DNA from: Chloroflexota bacterium
Lineage (GTDB): Bacteria; Chloroflexota; Chloroflexia; JAMDCE01
Length of the DNA: 7,564 nucleotides
Reading direction: 5' to 3'
Assembly: GCA_023489135.1 (NCBI GenBank)
Contig: JAMDCE010000345.1
Span: forward strand, 1 to 7,564
Under the pieces are notes generated by a model that did not search any database, had not been told where the DNA came from, and saw only the letters and a program-made list of their open reading frames with translations. A program made the position numbers and the translations under genes. Shown one piece after another: positions 1,754 through 7,564 of the stretch. Each line of letters opens with the position of its first letter. Within the stretch, counting starts at the first letter, position 1.

Positions 1754-1822
1754 GGGGTTAGGGGTTATGGGTTATGGGTTGAGCGCCAGTAGTATTGACC
1801 CCTATCCGCTAACCCCTAACCC
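1754..1822. repeat. Heptamer-based inverted repeat, copy A
   Basis: The 158-nt spacer between the dihydropyrimidinase stop and the M20 hydrolase start contains four tandem heptamers (two GGGGTTA, then TGGGTTA and TGGGTTG, 1754-1781). A C-rich complementary arm lies at 1798-1822. Positions 1755-1779 pair with 1798-1822 at 21 of 25 positions, the outer 13 perfectly, around an 18-nt loop. The element begins about 20 nt after the dihydropyrimidinase stop. No T-run follows it on the transcribed strand, so it is not a standard intrinsic terminator. It could affect mRNA processing, stability or partial termination, or be a repetitive extragenic palindrome. Confidence 0.8.
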
Positions 1823-1842
1823 GTATGCGCAATCTTCGCGAC

Positions 1843-3228
1843 TTAGCTCAAAACTTTGTTCCGCTTCACGAACTGGCCGTGGCCGTATTCGCCGACGAAT
1901 TCACCGTTCTCAAAGACCGTGGCGCCACGCACCAGGACGTCGCGGGCTTGGCCACTTATCTTGAACCCTTCGTAGAGATGGTAGTCGATGGCTGATTTCT
2001 GGGTAACCGCGGATAGAGTGCGCTCCGTTTTCGGATCCCATACCACCAGGTCGGCATCAGCACCCACTACGATGGCTCCCTTTCGGGGGAACATCCCAAA
2101 GATCTTGGCCGCCTGGGTCGAGCAGACGTCTACCCAGCGGTTGAGAGTGAGCCGGCCATTAACGGCGCCATAGTGATAGAGCAGGCCCACACGGTCTTCG
2201 ATGCCGGGCCCTCCGTTAGGAATCTTGGAGAAATTGTCGCTGCCGAGCGTCTTTTGATCCGCAAATCTAAACGGGCAATGATCTGACGCCACTGTCGCCA
2301 GCGCGCCAGAGGCCAGACCGCTCCAGATGGCCTCCCAGTTCCGCTTGTCCCGCGGTGGCGGTGAGAAGACGTACTTGGCTCCTTCAAAGCCGGGCTTCTC
2401 GATGTCTTCCTGCGAGGTGAATAAGTACTGTGGACAGGTTTCGGCCCAGACCATCTGTCCACGGGCCTGAGCGCGGCGAACCTCTTCCAGCGCCGGAGCG
2501 CAGGAGAGGTGAACCACGTAGGCCGGGACTCCAGCGAGGCCAGCCAGAGTAAGGAACCGGTTGGTCGCCTCAGCCTCGGCCTCCTCCGGACGGGTGGATG
2601 CGTGATACTTCGGTTCTGTCTGTCCGGCCGCCAAGGCCTGGCGCACCAGCACGTCCAGCACGTCGCCGTTCTCGCAGTGAGCCATCACTAGAGCGCCTAC
2701 TTCTTTGGCCCTCAGCAGCGTCCGGAACAGTGTCCAGTCATCGATCATTACCGCGCCCTTGTACGCCAGAAAGACTTTGAACGAAGTTATACCTTGCTCA
2801 ACGAGGGTCCCGATGTCGGCCAGAACGCCGTCATTCATTTCGCCGATCATCACATGTATGCCCCAGTCGATGACGGAGTTCCCCTTGCCTTTGGCGACCC
2901 ACGATTCGGCGACCTCGGTCAGTCGCTGTCCTTTAGCCTGAAGGCCGTAGTCTATTATAGAAGTCGTGCCACCCGCGGCCGCGGCCACTGTGCCCGAGCG
3001 ATAATTATCGCAACTCGTAGTTCCCCCAAAGAAAGTATCCAGATGGGTATGGACGTCGATTCCTCCGGGAATAACGTAGGCGCCACGAGCATCGATCGTC
3101 GCACCGGCCGGGGCGTCAAGGCTATGCCCTAGGGCGACGATCCGGCCGCCGTCGATGGCCACGTCGGCCTGATAGGTCTCCCCGGCCGTCACCACGGTTC
3201 CACCTTTAATCAGTCGAATCTCGCGCAT
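1843..3228 (-). CDS. hydA: Dihydropyrimidinase / D-hydantoinase-type cyclic amidohydrolase
   Basis: This 461-residue cytosolic amidohydrolase would open the ring of dihydropyrimidines or 5-substituted hydantoins, giving N-carbamoyl amino acids. It has the full length of the family: a small beta-sandwich domain from residues 1-55 and the C-terminus, and a TIM barrel between. The binuclear metal site is complete: H60 and H62 in DVHTHLD, the lysine normally carboxylated (K151 in FKVFLAYKG), H184 in MAHCENG, H240 in VVHLSCAP, and D316 in ASDHCPF. Y156 fits the usual substrate-binding tyrosine, and NGGPGIEDR (338-346) is the conserved loop closing over the substrate amide. AAAGGAG at 3243-3237 lies 8 nt before the ATG. 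The M20 carbamoyl hydrolase encoded next downstream is the natural partner. Allantoinase is less likely, because the FKVFLAYKG and NGGPGIEDR signatures are dihydropyrimidinase-like. Exact substrate and stereoselectivity are not readable here. Confidence 0.93.
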   Translation of the reverse strand: MREIRLIKGGTVVTAGETYQADVAIDGGRIVALGHSLDAPAGATIDARGAYVIPGGIDVHTHLDTFFGGTTSCDNYRSGTVAAAAGGTTSIIDYGLQAKGQRLTEVAESWVAKGKGNSVIDWGIHVMIGEMNDGVLADIGTLVEQGITSFKVFLAYKGAVMIDDWTLFRTLLRAKEVGALVMAHCENGDVLDVLVRQALAAGQTEPKYHASTRPEEAEAEATNRFLTLAGLAGVPAYVVHLSCAPALEEVRRAQARGQMVWAETCPQYLFTSQEDIEKPGFEGAKYVFSPPPRDKRNWEAIWSGLASGALATVASDHCPFRFADQKTLGSDNFSKIPNGGPGIEDRVGLLYHYGAVNGRLTLNRWVDVCSTQAAKIFGMFPRKGAIVVGADADLVVWDPKTERTLSAVTQKSAIDYHLYEGFKISGQARDVLVRGATVFENGEFVGEYGHGQFVKRNKVLS

Positions 3229-3257
3229 ATGATCTTCTCCTTTAAGTACAGCATCAT

Positions 3258-3269
3258 CACGAGTTCGTG
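3258..3269. promoter_or_regulatory. Small palindrome upstream of the dihydropyrimidinase (possible operator)
   Basis: CACGAGTTCGTG is a perfect palindrome, with 5-bp arms CACGA/TCGTG and a central GT. It sits 14 nt upstream of the dihydropyrimidinase Shine-Dalgarno, in the only non-repeat part of this spacer. The position would suit a repressor site or a short leader hairpin, but no convincing -35/-10 pair is visible and a 12-bp palindrome can arise by chance. Confidence 0.2.
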
Positions 3270-3279
3270 CCGTGTTTCT

Positions 3280-3342
3280 GGGGGGCAGGGGTTAGGGGTT
3301 AACAGGGATGTGGAAAGCACTTTAACCCCTATCCCCTAACCC
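3280..3342. repeat. Heptamer-based inverted repeat, copy B
   Basis: The 121-nt spacer between the SDR stop and the dihydropyrimidinase start holds AGGGGTTAGGGGTTAA (3287-3302), which pairs with 3322-3337 at 15 of 16 positions around a 19-nt loop. An alternative 10-bp register pairs 3289-3298 with 3333-3342. The C-rich arm lies only about 8 nt past the SDR stop codon. The heptamer unit is the same as in the other two long spacers, but the loop sequence is unrelated. No T-run follows on the transcribed strand. Confidence 0.78.
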
Positions 3343-3349
3343 TTATCCT

Positions 3350-4090
3350 CTACAACATCACATCTCCGCCGTTCGGTCCCAAGGTTTGGCCTGTGTAGTA
3401 GGAGCTCTCGTCGCTGGCCAGGAAAACGGCCGTTGGCACCACTTCATCCACCCGGCCGAAGCGGCGAAGAGGAAGCTCAGCCTCCTTCATGGCCCGCCAT
3501 TCGGGCGAGATATTGGCCAGTAGAGGCGTGTCGATAGGTCCTGGCGCAATGGCGTTCACCAGGATATGCGGCGCGACCTCAAGCGCCAGCGCTTTGGTAA
3601 AGGCGATGACCGCGCCTTTAGCCGCGCAGTAATGGACTAGTTCAGGGGCGCCCTTGTAGCCGAGCTGGGAGGCAAAGCTGATGATGCGACCGGATTTGCG
3701 CTCCAGCATGTGTGGGAGAACGAATCGGGTGCAAAGGAAGACACTGCCCAAATTGACCGCTATCATCTGATTCCACATGCTGATGGACATTTCCGCCAGG
3801 AGAGACTGAGTGACAATCCCGGCTACATTCGTCAAGACGTCGACGCGTCCAAATCTTTCCACGACGCTGGAAACCATCGCCTCGACCTGCGTGGCATCGG
3901 AGACATCAGCGGCCCACGTCGTCACGCTCCCGGCGCTTCCCTGTGCCTGGGCCACCAATTCCTCTAACCGGTCAGCCGAGCGGTCTACGGCCGCCACTGT
4001 AGCTCCTTCTCCCGCGTAGGCCAGGGCGATTCCTCGGCCCATTCCGCTGGCCGCGCCAGTAACCAGGGCTACCTTGTTCTGTAATCTCAT
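3350..4090 (-). CDS. SDR-family NAD(P)-dependent oxidoreductase (FabG-like)
   Basis: This is a 246-residue classical short-chain dehydrogenase/reductase, a cytosolic Rossmann-fold enzyme expected to interconvert an alcohol and a ketone. Visible motifs are the nucleotide loop TGAASGMG (11-18), D36 after beta-2 (favouring NAD over NADP), D62 in AADV, NVAG (88-91; the usual form is NAAG), N113, and the catalytic set S141, Y154 and K158 (YCAAK). PGPIDTP (183-189) and the C-terminal GQTLGPNGG are typical. The reading frame extends 15 codons further upstream, but the ATG at 4090 is chosen because AAAAGGAG lies 8 nt before it and the protein then starts with the standard MRLQNKVALVTG. It is separated from the transporter by a hairpin and from the dihydropyrimidinase by repeat copy B, so it may begin the catabolic transcript. 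The substrate is unknown; a hydroxyacid or similar intermediate of the same pathway is a guess. Confidence 0.92.
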   Translation of the reverse strand: MRLQNKVALVTGAASGMGRGIALAYAGEGATVAAVDRSADRLEELVAQAQGSAGSVTTWAADVSDATQVEAMVSSVVERFGRVDVLTNVAGIVTQSLLAEMSISMWNQMIAVNLGSVFLCTRFVLPHMLERKSGRIISFASQLGYKGAPELVHYCAAKGAVIAFTKALALEVAPHILVNAIAPGPIDTPLLANISPEWRAMKEAELPLRRFGRVDEVVPTAVFLASDESSYYTGQTLGPNGGDVML

Positions 4091-4098
4091 TAGAGTGT

Positions 4099-4106
4099 CT
4101 CCTTTT
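4099..4106 (-). promoter_or_regulatory. RBS that sets the SDR start
   Basis: AAAAGGAG on the minus strand is spaced 8 nt from the ATG at 4090. The longer in-frame start at 4135 would place this Shine-Dalgarno inside the coding region and add 15 residues that do not resemble the family N-terminus. Confidence 0.8.
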
Positions 4107-4189
4107 CTCAAAATAAACTCCACCGGCGAGATCACTATTCTGGCCTAGACTTGACCCAAGCTAGATATGTACAAAGGTGACAGAGGAGA

Positions 4190-4269
4190 GGGGCTATGGG
4201 TTATGAGTTAGGAGTTGTGAGTTATTGCTTATCGTCCAACCCACTTCTTAACTCCTAACCCCTATCCCC
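4190..4269. repeat. Heptamer-based inverted repeat, copy C (degenerate)
   Basis: Five degenerate heptamers occupy 4190-4224, moving from GGGGCTA and TGGGTTA to TGAGTTA, GGAGTTG and TGAGTTA. Positions 4190-4213 pair with 4246-4269 at 20 of 24 positions around a 32-nt internal region. The unit GGGTTA often becomes GAGTTA here, and the opposite arm carries the matching AACTCC form. This copy lies in the 269-nt spacer between the last permease and the SDR gene. Confidence 0.75.
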
Positions 4270-4281
4270 CTTCGCTGTTAG

Positions 4282-4321
4282 AAAAGGCATACCGGCCAGC
4301 GCACCGAGTGCGACTGGCCGG
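4282..4321 (-). terminator. GC-rich hairpin after the permease gene, possible terminator
   Basis: Downstream of the last permease stop, CCGGCCAG (4292-4299) pairs with CTGGCCGG (4314-4321), and CGCAC (4300-4304) pairs with GTGCG (4308-4312). This makes a 13-bp stem with one bulged A and a 3-nt loop. On the transcribed strand the stem is followed by TATGCC and then only four T, so the U-tract is short and displaced. It could be a weak intrinsic terminator, or a stabiliser protecting the 3' end of the transporter mRNA. A second, weaker 6-bp stem (4329-4334 with 4348-4353) lies between it and the stop codon. Confidence 0.45.
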
Positions 4322-4359
4322 ATGTTGCGCGTCCAAAGCGGCTAGCCGGACGCCGAGAA

Positions 4360-5211
4360 TCAGATTTCTTCCTGAACCGCCGCTCTCTGCGCGGTTCGAC
4401 GGAGCATAAAGGTCATCGCCAGATAGGCTATCGCCAGGACGGTCAGCGAGAGGAGGGTAGTTAACACGCCCCAGGCAAAGAGATTCGGATGGATCTCGAT
4501 TGAGAACGTGCCGAAGATCTCCAGCGGCAGAGTATTTGCCGATCCAACGGCGAAGACAGAGCGAGCGAACTCGTCAAAGGACAGGGTGAACCCAAACAGC
4601 GCCGAGGCGATGATACCTGGAAGCACTAAGGGGAAGGTGATGCGGCGGAAGGTGACCCATTCTGAGGCCCCCAGGTCCATGGCCGCCTCTTCCAGAGACC
4701 GGTCGAACCGGTTGAAGATCGCAAGCATCACCACGAAGGAGAAGGGGTAGGCGTACAGGACGTGGGCGACCAGACCAGTGCTATACCAGTTCCGATCCAT
4801 GTTCAGCCAGTTGGCTGTCATCGCTAGGCCAAGGCTTACCAGAACGCCGGGGACCATAATGCCCATCAAGACCAGGTAGAAGATACTGCTAGCTCCCTTG
4901 AACTTTCGCCGGAAGGCCAGGGCGGTCAGGGTGCCAAGGATGGTGGCGACGACCATGACGATAACCGCCAGGGTCAACGACCGAACCAGGGCGTCGGTCA
5001 GATTGAGCGGCGCCACGCGGGTCGGCGGGACGAGTCTGAAAAGGTGCTTGTACCAGTAGATGCTGAGGCCTTTGAGTGGGAATTGGGGTCCTCCCTCTGG
5101 ACCAACCTGGAAAGAGAGTATTGCCATGACCAGGAAAGGCGCGTAGAGGACTAAGACGAATATGGCGGTGTAGATACTTAGAATTCCTTTGAGCCATCGA
5201 CTTATACGCAT
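4360..5211 (-). CDS. ABC transporter permease, PotC-like (spermidine/putrescine-type importer)
   Basis: This 283-residue inner-membrane permease would form half of the transmembrane channel of the importer. Six hydrophobic segments are visible at about 12-34, 76-98, 108-131, 145-167, 193-213 and 247-270. The cytoplasmic EAA loop that docks on the ATPase is intact: EEAAMDLGA from 174 with the downstream ITFPLVLPG ending at 199. The following FTLSFDEFARSVF segment is PotC-like. The reading frame extends 37 codons upstream into the previous gene, but ATG 5211 is chosen: AGGGGGAA precedes it, the protein then starts MRISRWLKG directly before the first helix, and the spacer from the upstream permease is 11 nt. 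It is the last gene of the transporter block. Polyamine specificity should not be assumed, since this family also carries other amino compounds and the neighbours suggest a ureide-type ligand. Confidence 0.92.
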   Translation of the reverse strand: MRISRWLKGILSIYTAIFVLVLYAPFLVMAILSFQVGPEGGPQFPLKGLSIYWYKHLFRLVPPTRVAPLNLTDALVRSLTLAVIVMVVATILGTLTALAFRRKFKGASSIFYLVLMGIMVPGVLVSLGLAMTANWLNMDRNWYSTGLVAHVLYAYPFSFVVMLAIFNRFDRSLEEAAMDLGASEWVTFRRITFPLVLPGIIASALFGFTLSFDEFARSVFAVGSANTLPLEIFGTFSIEIHPNLFAWGVLTTLLSLTVLAIAYLAMTFMLRRTAQRAAVQEEI

Positions 5212-6191: not shown

Positions 6192-7319
6192 CTAAACCTC
6201 CTTTCGCGAGATAAGGCGGGTCTGCTTGACCGGCCAGTGTAGAGGCAATTCCGTCCCGTAGGCCGATTGCTCGCCAACCTGAATCAGGCCCTGGCTCCGG
6301 TGCTTCTCCACCTTGAAGACTCCCCCATCGGAGAGCTGCAACATGTAGCTAAGCCTGGAGCCCGTGAACTCGCTCTCGATCATTTTCGCGGTCAAGCGGT
6401 TAACCGCACCCCCATCCGGTTTGGGTTCTCCGATCTCCGCCAGGTCAGTGCGAACCAGAACCGCGCAGGCTTCACCGTCAACTGGAGCAAAGTCTCCCAA
6501 AGGGGCCAGCATCTCGCCCGACAAGGTTTCCACTCTAGCCAGATCGTCGGTTTCACCTTTCACTTTGCCCTGGAGGACGTTGAAGTTGCCGATAAACTTG
6601 GCCACAAACTCCGAGGTGGGCTGGCGAAAGATCTCGTGCGGCGTTCCGATCTGCTGAATGCAACCCTGATCCATAACCACCAGGCGATCGGACATAGCCA
6701 TAGCTTCGCTCTGGTTGCCCGTGACGAGGATAAAGGTGATGCCCAGTTTCTTGTTAAGCCGCTTGAGCTCAGCCTGCATCTTGACGCGCAAGTTGGCGTC
6801 CAGAGCGCCGAGGGGTTCGTCTAAGAACAGCACCTGAGGTCGGGTTATCAGCGCCCTGGCCAGGGCCACCCGTTGCCGTTGGCCTCCTGAAAGCTGTTCA
6901 ACGTACCGGTTGCCCAGACCCTCCAGGCCCACCATATGGAGCGAGTCACGCACCTCCTGCGTTCGCTGCGAGGAGGGCACCTGGCGCATTTCTAGCCCAA
7001 ACTCGATGTTCTTGTGCACGGTCATATGAGGGAACAGCGCAAAGTGCTGCAGCACCATGGCCGTGTCACGCTGGAAGGGCGGCACGTTGACCACGTCCTG
7101 CCCGTTCAGCAGAATCTGACCCGAGTCTGGCCTTTCAAACCCCGCCAAGACCCGGAGAAGTGCGCTCTTGCCACTTCCGCTCGGGCCGAGAATAGAGACG
7201 AATTCTCCACGTCGAACCGTCAGCGAAAAATCGCTGACGACGCGCACACCATAAAAGGACTTGTTGACATTTTGGATCGCCAGTATGGGATCCGATTTCG
7301 TGGAGTCCACGGTGGTCAC
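6192..7319 (-). CDS. ABC transporter ATP-binding protein, PotA-like, with degenerate H-loop
   Basis: This 375-residue ATPase would drive the importer from the cytoplasmic face. In order it has Walker A GPSGSGKS (45-52), the Q-loop glutamine Q91 in LQHFALFPHMT, the signature LSGGQ (143-147), Walker B VLFLDEP with D167/E168, and GALD (171-174). A C-terminal TOBE-type domain spans about 245-375, with VLVRTDLAEI and SRLSYMLQLSDGG. The H-loop is abnormal: the family reads VTHDQ, here it is VTGNQ, so the switch histidine is Gly201 and the next aspartate is Asn202. The codons at 6719-6714 are GGC AAC. The start is a GTG at 7319 with AGGAGGG 8 nt upstream. The preceding gene is a second ATPase, so this subunit may work as one half of an asymmetric ATPase pair. 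ATP-binding residues remain, so complete inactivity is not implied. Confidence 0.93.
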   Translation of the reverse strand: MTTVDSTKSDPILAIQNVNKSFYGVRVVSDFSLTVRRGEFVSILGPSGSGKSALLRVLAGFERPDSGQILLNGQDVVNVPPFQRDTAMVLQHFALFPHMTVHKNIEFGLEMRQVPSSQRTQEVRDSLHMVGLEGLGNRYVEQLSGGQRQRVALARALITRPQVLFLDEPLGALDANLRVKMQAELKRLNKKLGITFILVTGNQSEAMAMSDRLVVMDQGCIQQIGTPHEIFRQPTSEFVAKFIGNFNVLQGKVKGETDDLARVETLSGEMLAPLGDFAPVDGEACAVLVRTDLAEIGEPKPDGGAVNRLTAKMIESEFTGSRLSYMLQLSDGGVFKVEKHRSQGLIQVGEQSAYGTELPLHWPVKQTRLISRKEV

Positions 7320-7327
7320 TGGCCTTA

Positions 7328-7334
7328 CCCTCCT
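7328..7334 (-). promoter_or_regulatory. RBS that sets the GTG start of the full-length ATPase
   Basis: AGGAGGG on the minus strand is spaced 8 nt from the GTG at 7319 and overlaps the TAG stop (7335-7333) of the upstream ATPase. No in-frame ATG before the Walker A motif competes with it. Confidence 0.75.
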
Positions 7335-7564
7335 ACTCCGAAAGGACTACAGTCTCGGCGACCGGCCACCAAACCGTGACGGGGGAGTCCAGCTCGGGCA
7401 CCTGATCGCTCAGACTCTCGTGCTGTTCCACCCACATTCCGTTGCCGCTCCCCAATTGCACGTTATAGGTAAAGATCGATCCGATAATCTCCTCACCGGC
7501 GAGGACGCCATTTACAGCCATCTCGCCGGGACCGGCTTGGCGAGCACCTCCTTGCACCCGGCAG
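7333..7564 (-). CDS. ABC transporter ATP-binding protein, C-terminal TOBE domain only (cut by window edge)
   Basis: The frame is open from the window edge to a TAG at 7335-7333, giving about 77 residues. They resemble the C-terminal TOBE domain of Pot-type ATPases: GVLAGEEIIGSIFTYNVQLG, then GMWVEQH and WWPVAETVVLSE. They align convincingly by eye with the end of the next ATPase, where SYMLQLSDGG, VFKVEKH and HWPVKQTRLIS occupy the same places. TOBE domains bind small ligands or structural partners and steady the ATPase dimer. The nucleotide-binding domain would lie beyond the window, so its catalytic motifs cannot be judged. The 13-nt gap to the next ATPase and the shared Shine-Dalgarno/stop overlap place it in the same operon. 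A GTG at 7557 is not a likely real start, because the frame stays open upstream. Confidence 0.75.
   Translation of the reverse strand, partial: CRVQGGARQAGPGEMAVNGVLAGEEIIGSIFTYNVQLGSGNGMWVEQHESLSDQVPELDSPVTVWWPVAETVVLSE

What the first reader, a model, noticed from the sequence alone, without database searches (positions are those of the whole stretch)
1754..4269. A telomere-like heptamer inverted repeat occupies every long spacer of the locus
All three spacers above 100 nt (1685-1842, 3229-3349, 4091-4359) contain a large imperfect inverted repeat made of (G/T)GGGTTA heptamers. The short spacers of 6-13 nt have none, and I saw none inside the genes. Stems are conserved (21/25, 15/16 and 20/24 paired positions) but the loops are unrelated. 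This argues for a repeating structural unit rather than duplication of one whole element. Options are a REP/BIME-like or MITE-like family, a target for a structure-specific nuclease or transposase, or an mRNA punctuation element between genes.
Basis: partly seen in the sequence, partly recalled or inferred. Interest (0 to 1): 0.72.

Follow-up and report, generated by a model that had tools for sequence, protein, structure and literature searches.

The report
Seven-base repeat hairpins between bacterial genes
Three long gaps between genes on this bacterial DNA each hold a hairpin built from a seven-letter repeat, a known type of bacterial repeat in a form not found in the papers searched, and in distant relatives such hairpins often start at a gene's stop signal.

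Summary
Three inverted repeats of degenerate (N)GGGTTA heptamers occupy the three spacers over 100 nt; the detector finds 0 in 1000 dinucleotide shuffles. The window's genome is not held; by proteins it looks like a Chloroflexota bacterium without a close sequenced relative (inference).

In one Chloroflexota class, 10 of 158 genomes carry a stricter form, up to 49 hits per strand, 0 in the reversed control. Of 61 elements found in stretches of these carriers, 59 are intergenic; of 46 with both neighbours called, 1 lies between divergent genes. The stop codon is in heptamer register at 37 of 51 nearby gene ends. 58 of 61 elements carry stops in all six frames, against 13 of 376 random segments.

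It lacks terminator T-runs (0 of 39) and its arms do not co-evolve; a REP/RAYT link is unproven. One orthologous spacer carries inverted arrays of different 7-8-mers in 6 of 31 genomes read.

Best reading: a new member of the heptameric intergenic repeats known from Xanthomonas, Nostoc and Beggiatoaceae, probably growing by slippage, tolerated at gene ends because the unit carries stop codons, and forming mRNA hairpins.

The parts
1755..1822 (.). Inverted repeat 1: G-rich heptamer arm 1755-1779, loop, C-rich arm 1798-1822; 20 nt downstream of the dihydropyrimidinase stop codon
3282..3349 (.). Inverted repeat 2: arms 3282-3302 and 3322-3342 (array runs to 3349); directly abuts the SDR stop codon TAG (3350-3352, minus strand), which lies in heptamer register
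4191..4268 (.). Inverted repeat 3, the most degenerate: arms 4198-4216 and 4250-4268; 91 nt downstream of the permease stop codon
464..1684 (-). M20-family Zn hydrolase (relatives named N-carbamoyl-L-amino-acid hydrolase), downstream neighbour of repeat 1
1843..3228 (-). dihydropyrimidinase/hydantoinase, between repeats 1 and 2
3350..4090 (-). short-chain dehydrogenase, between repeats 2 and 3
4360..5211 (-). ABC transporter permease, upstream neighbour of repeat 3

Best explanation
The three structures are inverted pairs of heptanucleotide tandem arrays, the long simple-sequence-repeat type of intergenic repeat. Inferred mechanism: a heptamer expands and contracts by replication slippage, and a nearby inverted copy arises by strand switching at the hairpin. 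Read from the sequence: the (N)GGGTTA unit carries TAA on its C-rich strand, and TAG or TAA on its G-rich strand when N is G or A; because 7 is not a multiple of 3, a few units place a stop in every frame. Inferred: arrays inside genes are therefore purged, and arrays reaching a gene's 3' end are tolerated and supply or replace its stop codon. Once there, the transcript carries a hairpin soon after the stop codon (predicted, not measured). The likeliest effect is a mild non-terminator 3' structure that stops readthrough and separates neighbouring genes.
For: Chance excluded. Stricter pattern in 10 of 158 genomes of one class, many copies in G345, G357, G380-G382, 0 in the reversed-pattern control. 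59 of 61 elements intergenic; contexts of the 46 with both neighbours called: 38 tandem, 7 convergent, 1 divergent. Stop codon in heptamer register for 37 of 51 gene ends, and, counted by hand from that listing, for 14 of 23 whose stop lies before the array. Genes next to elements end in TAG 33, TAA 9, TGA 5 of 47, against TGA 313, TAG 183, TAA 175 of 671 other genes; last codon Gly 21 of 47 against 81 of 671. Stops in all six frames in 58 of 61 elements against 13 of 376 random intergenic segments lacking the motif. Same spacers in related genomes keep an element while unit number changes. A de novo search for inverted pairs of any tandem unit gave 42 hits, 38 without duplicates: 35 at period 7, 1 at 8, 2 at 9; among the 15 with units other than the GGTTA type used for choosing stretches, 12 at period 7; 0 in shuffles. 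Published precedents PMC4692102 and PMC4679880.
Against: The window's genome is not held, so everything genome-wide is inferred from distant relatives (at most 55% identity for the dihydropyrimidinase in the class). In carrier stretches fetched without regard to hits there is 1 element in 254 kb, while the window has 3 in 7.6 kb: unexplained. Only one window element starts at its stop codon; the others are 20 and 91 nt away. The pattern used for genome searches matches only two of the three window repeats. Part of the register result is automatic, since an ORF running into an array is stopped in register. In two broader samples the reversed control is not empty: 1 of 301 genomes against 3 with the pattern, 2 of 150 against 2, so genomes with a single hit may be chance. 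Heptamer arrays chosen without regard to unit are intergenic (57 of 63) but show no 3'-end bias (11 of 24) and no significant avoidance of divergent spacers (8 of 44, 11.1 expected). Arms are no more complementary within an element than when swapped between elements of the same genome, if anything slightly less (13.46 against 14.26; duplex energy no different), which argues against selection on the stem. Slippage and strand switching were not tested.
Confidence: 0.72

Rival explanations
1. A functional mRNA punctuation element: selection keeps a stop-anchored hairpin between genes of an operon (3'-end protection, translational backstop, decoupling), whatever its sequence.
For: At the glgC1-glgC2 spacer, inverted 7-8-mer arrays with different units start at or within a few nucleotides of the stop in 6 of 31 genomes read: G357 and G345 (GGGGTTA type), G330 (AATGCAA), G360 (GATTGCA), G352 (GTTACAG), G348 (octamer TGACACGG, seen by eye); G097 and G060 have near-perfect palindromes there. 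One carrier, G345, has two elements near its own dihydropyrimidinase gene.
Against: Arms do not co-vary. Of the 30 spacers, 8 are 17 nt or shorter with no element, 14 are 27-216 nt long without such arrays (judged by eye) and one (G363) has a one-sided array; these 30 are the best matches among 104 genomes with the gene. 29 of 30 dihydropyrimidinase loci fetched from the class show no element within about 1.5 kb. Most heptamer arrays have no inverted partner: 16 of 78 do in hit-independent loci, 90 of 310 in all.
Confidence: 0.2
2. Transposase-linked REP/BIME or MITE family.
For: Dispersed, intergenic, palindromic, many copies per genome. Y1_Tnp matches in 8 of 10 carriers, one of them (G382) below the curated cut-off.
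Against: No Y1_Tnp match in carriers G345 and G375, and six in non-carrier G288, the only non-carrier searched; the family also covers IS200 transposases. No fixed ends seen; unit number varies in place with conserved flanks; different units build the same structure. Genomes may be incomplete.
Confidence: 0.06
3. Rho-independent transcription terminators.
For: Predicted stems at gene 3' ends, including convergent spacers.
Against: 0 of 39 tandem elements followed by T4 within 12 nt; no terminator-like site at the three window repeats.
Confidence: 0.04
4. G-quadruplex element: the G-rich arm folds as a quadruplex.
For: Three to four G-tracts spaced by about three bases in the better-kept G-rich arms, as in the Xanthomonas/Nostoc heptamers shown to form G4 in vitro (PMC4692102 abstract).
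Against: Other heptamers in the same architecture (GATTGCA, AATGCAA, ACGTGAA) have no G-tracts, so G4 cannot be the shared reason for the structure.
Confidence: 0.06

Closest known systems
G-rich heptameric repeats GGGAATC (Xanthomonas) and GGGGA(C/T)T (Nostoc), Rehm et al. 2015, PMC4692102 (abstract, sections 13, 14, 16 and found passages read)
   Different: Unit is (N)GGGTTA and carries stop codons; host is Chloroflexota by inference; loops in several carriers hold nonamer repeats (by eye); several different heptamers form the same structure in one genome (G357).
TAACTGA heptamer repeats of marine Beggiatoaceae, MacGregor 2015, PMC4679880 (found passages read)
   Same: Heptamer arrays whose unit gives stops in all three forward frames, so they can only overlap ORF ends.
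   Different: Those are direct repeats, mostly just upstream of start codons (one inverted case); these are inverted and at gene 3' ends.
REP/BIME palindromes with RAYT transposases (PMC2817692, PMC3733652: only the start of the abstracts seen in search listings)
   Same: Many copies, intergenic, palindromic.
   Different: No fixed palindrome and tandem heptamer arms; link with RAYT unproven.

Membership tests
Heptameric intergenic repeats (Rehm et al. type) | Tandem 7-nt unit | tested here: met
   in the window; in relatives 35 of 38 unique pairs at period 7, partly because stretches were chosen by the heptamer; 5 of 6 in stretches not so chosen
Heptameric intergenic repeats (Rehm et al. type) | Over-represented in non-coding DNA | tested here: met
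   window: 3 of 3 in spacers; relatives: 59 of 61
Heptameric intergenic repeats (Rehm et al. type) | Under-represented between divergent genes | tested here: met
   relatives: 1 of 87 divergent against 45 of 404 other spacers over 40 nt; not significant for heptamer arrays of any unit (8 of 44)
Heptameric intergenic repeats (Rehm et al. type) | Dispersed copies through the host genome | not testable with these tools
   own genome not held; met in multi-copy carriers
Heptameric intergenic repeats (Rehm et al. type) | G-quadruplex formation in vitro | not testable with these tools
   needs CD or footprinting
REP/BIME | Association with a RAYT (Y1) transposase | tested here: inconclusive
   Y1_Tnp match in 8 of 10 carriers, none in G345 and G375, six in the one non-carrier searched; not testable in the window's genome
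MITE | Fixed terminal inverted repeats and target-site duplication | tested here: inconclusive
   orthologous spacers show in-place change of unit number with conserved flanks; no formal test for duplications was made
Intrinsic terminator | Stem followed by T-run | tested here: not met
   window; 0 of 39 tandem elements in relatives

The most novel reading that the evidence does not exclude
In this Chloroflexota class, stop-anchored inverted arrays of 7-8-mers form again and again, from different unit sequences, at the same operon junctions: a sequence-independent punctuation device selected for architecture (all-frame stops plus a hairpin) rather than inherited as a repeat family.
Probability: 0.18. 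Interest if true: 0.75.

Novelty: new member of a known kind. Interest (0 to 1): 0.45.

Why it matters
Why 7-nt arrays are so common among bacterial long simple-sequence repeats, and whether they do anything, is open; PMC4692102 says that a functional role remains to be elucidated. Here the unit carries stop codons, elements in relatives are phased with gene stops, and one orthologous spacer holds arrays of different units in several genomes. That makes 'mutational by-product tolerated at gene ends' against 'selected punctuation' directly testable.

Tried and rejected
Whole-genome scan of the source organism: not possible. Plasmid similarity searches: no useful match (the low-complexity filter may be the cause). 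Rfam on the window: no match at gathering score. RAYT link: left undecided. Co-evolution of arms: not found. Intrinsic terminators: rejected. A first detector for tandem-unit inverted repeats was too loose and was dropped; a stricter one replaced it, and its duplicates were removed. One search read minus-strand loci in the wrong orientation and is superseded. In some searches the pattern was so strict that it misses all three window repeats; I gave 36 of the 82 loci then held. The relaxed pattern matches two of the three window repeats. Viral contigs: 2 records with a related GGGTTAC unit, not pursued. Other samples: 3 of 301 Chloroflexota genomes, 2 of 2 in the family of G038, 2 of 150 in the phylum of G033, 0 of 5 in that of G007, 0 of 7 in that of G001. 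A positive control on a Nostoc plasmid failed because the record is not held; the E. coli control is only 50 kb. Sequence-string search of papers gave 3,255 papers, 25 listed, none of them on this subject by title, and was not used.

Selection: 57 of the 80 fetched stretches were taken because they had pattern hits; gene position was not a criterion. Gene calls in relatives come from my own simple ORF scorer, which called 77-80% of bases coding in pooled sets and trims some starts, so it misses or shortens some genes. In one search the 61 elements are 58 from seven genomes plus the three of the window; the single elements of G371, G452 and G097 were left out.

Full report
What is in the window. 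All genes run on the minus strand: a MmgE/PrpD-type gene, an M20 Zn hydrolase, dihydropyrimidinase, a short-chain dehydrogenase, two ABC permeases, an ABC ATPase and a second TOBE-domain fragment. The three spacers longer than 100 nt each hold an inverted repeat of degenerate GGGTTA-type heptamers; the spacers of 4-13 nt hold none. A detector (two tandem heptamers with up to 2 mismatches facing their reverse complement) finds exactly these three and 0 in 1000 dinucleotide shuffles. As minus-strand RNA they are predicted to fold at -31.8, -31.8 and -36.2 kcal/mol, z -2.9, -2.0, -3.4.

Where it comes from. No genome is held for the window. The best dihydropyrimidinase relative is 70% identical on a 4.9-kb contig. 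For the M20 enzyme several of the 120 listed relatives are named Thermomicrobiales or Sphaerobacter, and among 301 Chloroflexota genomes only G288 passes the cut-off set, at 63%. So the source is probably a Chloroflexota bacterium without a close sequenced relative. This is inference.

Other copies. The pattern GGGTTA-N-GGGTTA, 8-38 nt, TAACCC matches two of the three window repeats. It occurs in 3 of 301 genomes drawn from the phylum, with the reversed control in 1, and in 10 of 158 in the class of G288: G357 49+49 hits per strand, G345 18+21, G380 20+22, G381 13+9, G382 10+16, G375 5+6, G383 2, three with one each; the reversed control is 0 in all 158. Overlapping hits mean that elements are fewer than hits. 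In the phylum of G033 it occurs in 2 of 150 (one genome with 7 hits, one with a single hit), and the reversed control in 2. Multi-copy carriers are therefore clear and single hits may be chance.

Position. In 80 fetched stretches of the 10 carriers the detector finds 61 elements, 59 intergenic; the two 'genic' ones have 53-56% of their length in called genes. Of the 46 intergenic ones with both neighbours called, 38 are tandem, 7 convergent and 1 divergent. By spacer (over 40 nt), 38 of 335 tandem, 7 of 69 convergent and 1 of 87 divergent carry one.

Stop codons. The distance from element to the upstream gene's end is often a multiple of seven. The stop codon is in heptamer register in 37 of 51 cases; in many, the gene ends TAG and the array continues GGGTTAGGGG. 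An ORF that enters the array must stop in register, so I also counted by hand only stops lying before the array: 14 of 23 in register, where one in seven is expected. Genes within 30 nt of an element prefer TAG (33 of 47, against 183 of 671) and end in glycine (21 of 47, against 81 of 671), as expected if the array supplies the end of the gene. 58 of 61 elements have stops in all six frames, against 13 of 376 random 78-nt intergenic segments without the motif. In the window only repeat 2 abuts its stop codon (gap 0, in register). Repeats 1 and 3 lie 20 nt (out of register) and 91 nt (in register, which at that distance means little) away; repeat 1 lacks a stop in one plus-strand frame.

Evolution. 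Genes with 94-99% protein identity in G380-G382, 89% in G375/G382 and 77% in G345/G357 keep an element at the same junction, with different numbers of units and, in some pairs, unrelated loops. Complementarity within elements is not higher than between swapped arms of the same genome (13.46 against a mean of 14.26, sd 0.35; duplex energy -32.0 against -32.7, sd 0.8). Arm lengths correlate weakly (rho 0.22, p 0.09). So the two arms look alike because they share a unit; there is no sign that they compensate each other.

Sequence independence. A de novo search for inverted pairs of tandem arrays with any unit of 4-13 nt in loci L122-L299 gave 42 hits, 0 in shuffled sequence. Without duplicates there are 38: 35 at period 7, 1 at 8, 2 at 9; 15 have units other than the GGTTA type, 12 of them at period 7. 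Since many stretches were chosen by the GGGTTA pattern, the fair numbers are those 12 of 15, and 5 of 6 in stretches not chosen by it. The same script found 1 in 1.17 Mb of the 80 named loci (mostly other Chloroflexi, many Anaerolineae) and 0 in 50 kb of E. coli. At the glgC1-glgC2 spacer, read in the 30 best matches of 104 genomes plus G345, inverted arrays with different units start at or within a few nucleotides of the stop in G357, G345, G330, G360, G352 and G348 (octamer, by eye). G097 and G060 have near-perfect palindromes, G363 a one-sided array, eight genomes spacers of 2-17 nt, and 14 genomes longer spacers without such arrays by eye.

Limits against this reading. In hit-independent loci 16 of 78 period-7 arrays have an inverted partner within 110 nt and 10 a direct one; in all loci 90 and 44 of 310. 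Inversion is common but not the rule. Arrays taken without regard to unit are intergenic (57 of 63) but not biased to 3' ends (11 of 24 nearer the 3' end), and 8 of 44 lie between divergent genes where 11.1 are expected. The 3' anchoring was therefore seen only for the stop-carrying, inverted family. The density in the window (3 in 7.6 kb) is far above that in carrier stretches fetched blindly (1 in 254 kb). 29 of 30 dihydropyrimidinase loci of the class show no element; the exception, G345, has two nearby.

Mechanism. Shown: tandem heptamers in inverted pairs, intergenic, stop-carrying, phased with stop codons in relatives, changing unit number in place. Inferred: slippage, inverted duplication, purging from genes, tolerance at gene ends, a weak 3' hairpin role.

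Known kind. PMC4692102 describes GGGAATC and GGGGA(C/T)T heptamers with inverted pairs, the same gene-orientation bias and position near stop codons. PMC4679880 describes a stop-carrying heptamer, TAACTGA. Searches for a report in Chloroflexota showed none in what was listed (15 of 113 papers listed; 1 paper; 10; 0), in an open-access library that lacks most subscription journals. I therefore file it as a new member of a known kind.

Noticed in passing
window 4284-4313: A G+C-rich hairpin followed by T-rich sequence lies between the permease stop codon (4360) and repeat 3 on the minus strand, a possible ordinary terminator (scan hit 4307-4292; the scan as a whole finds fewer sites than shuffles).
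   Followed up: no
window 6192-7319 and 7333-7563: Two ABC ATPase genes seem to lie in tandem: a full one and, upstream, the TOBE-domain end of another cut by the window edge.
   Followed up: no
L233 and L250, glgC1-glgC2 spacer: G097 and G060 carry near-perfect palindromes with a GTAGAGACG/GTAGATCCG-type stem instead of tandem units in the same spacer.
   Followed up: partly
L134, L141, L168, L175: By eye, a second heptamer type (about GGTTCTC/AGTTCTC) follows the GGGGTTA arrays in G380-G382.
   Followed up: no
loops in G357, G375, G380-G383 elements: By eye, many loops hold nonamer repeats of the ATCAATGAN type, so elements look like composites of 7-mer arms and 9-mer loops.
   Followed up: partly
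L186 (G345:C340) 3466-3574 and 4429-4557: A carrier has two such elements near its own dihydropyrimidinase gene; 29 of 30 dihydropyrimidinase loci of the class show none.
   Followed up: yes
L081, L082: Two viral contigs carry inverted GGGTTAC-type repeats.
   Followed up: no
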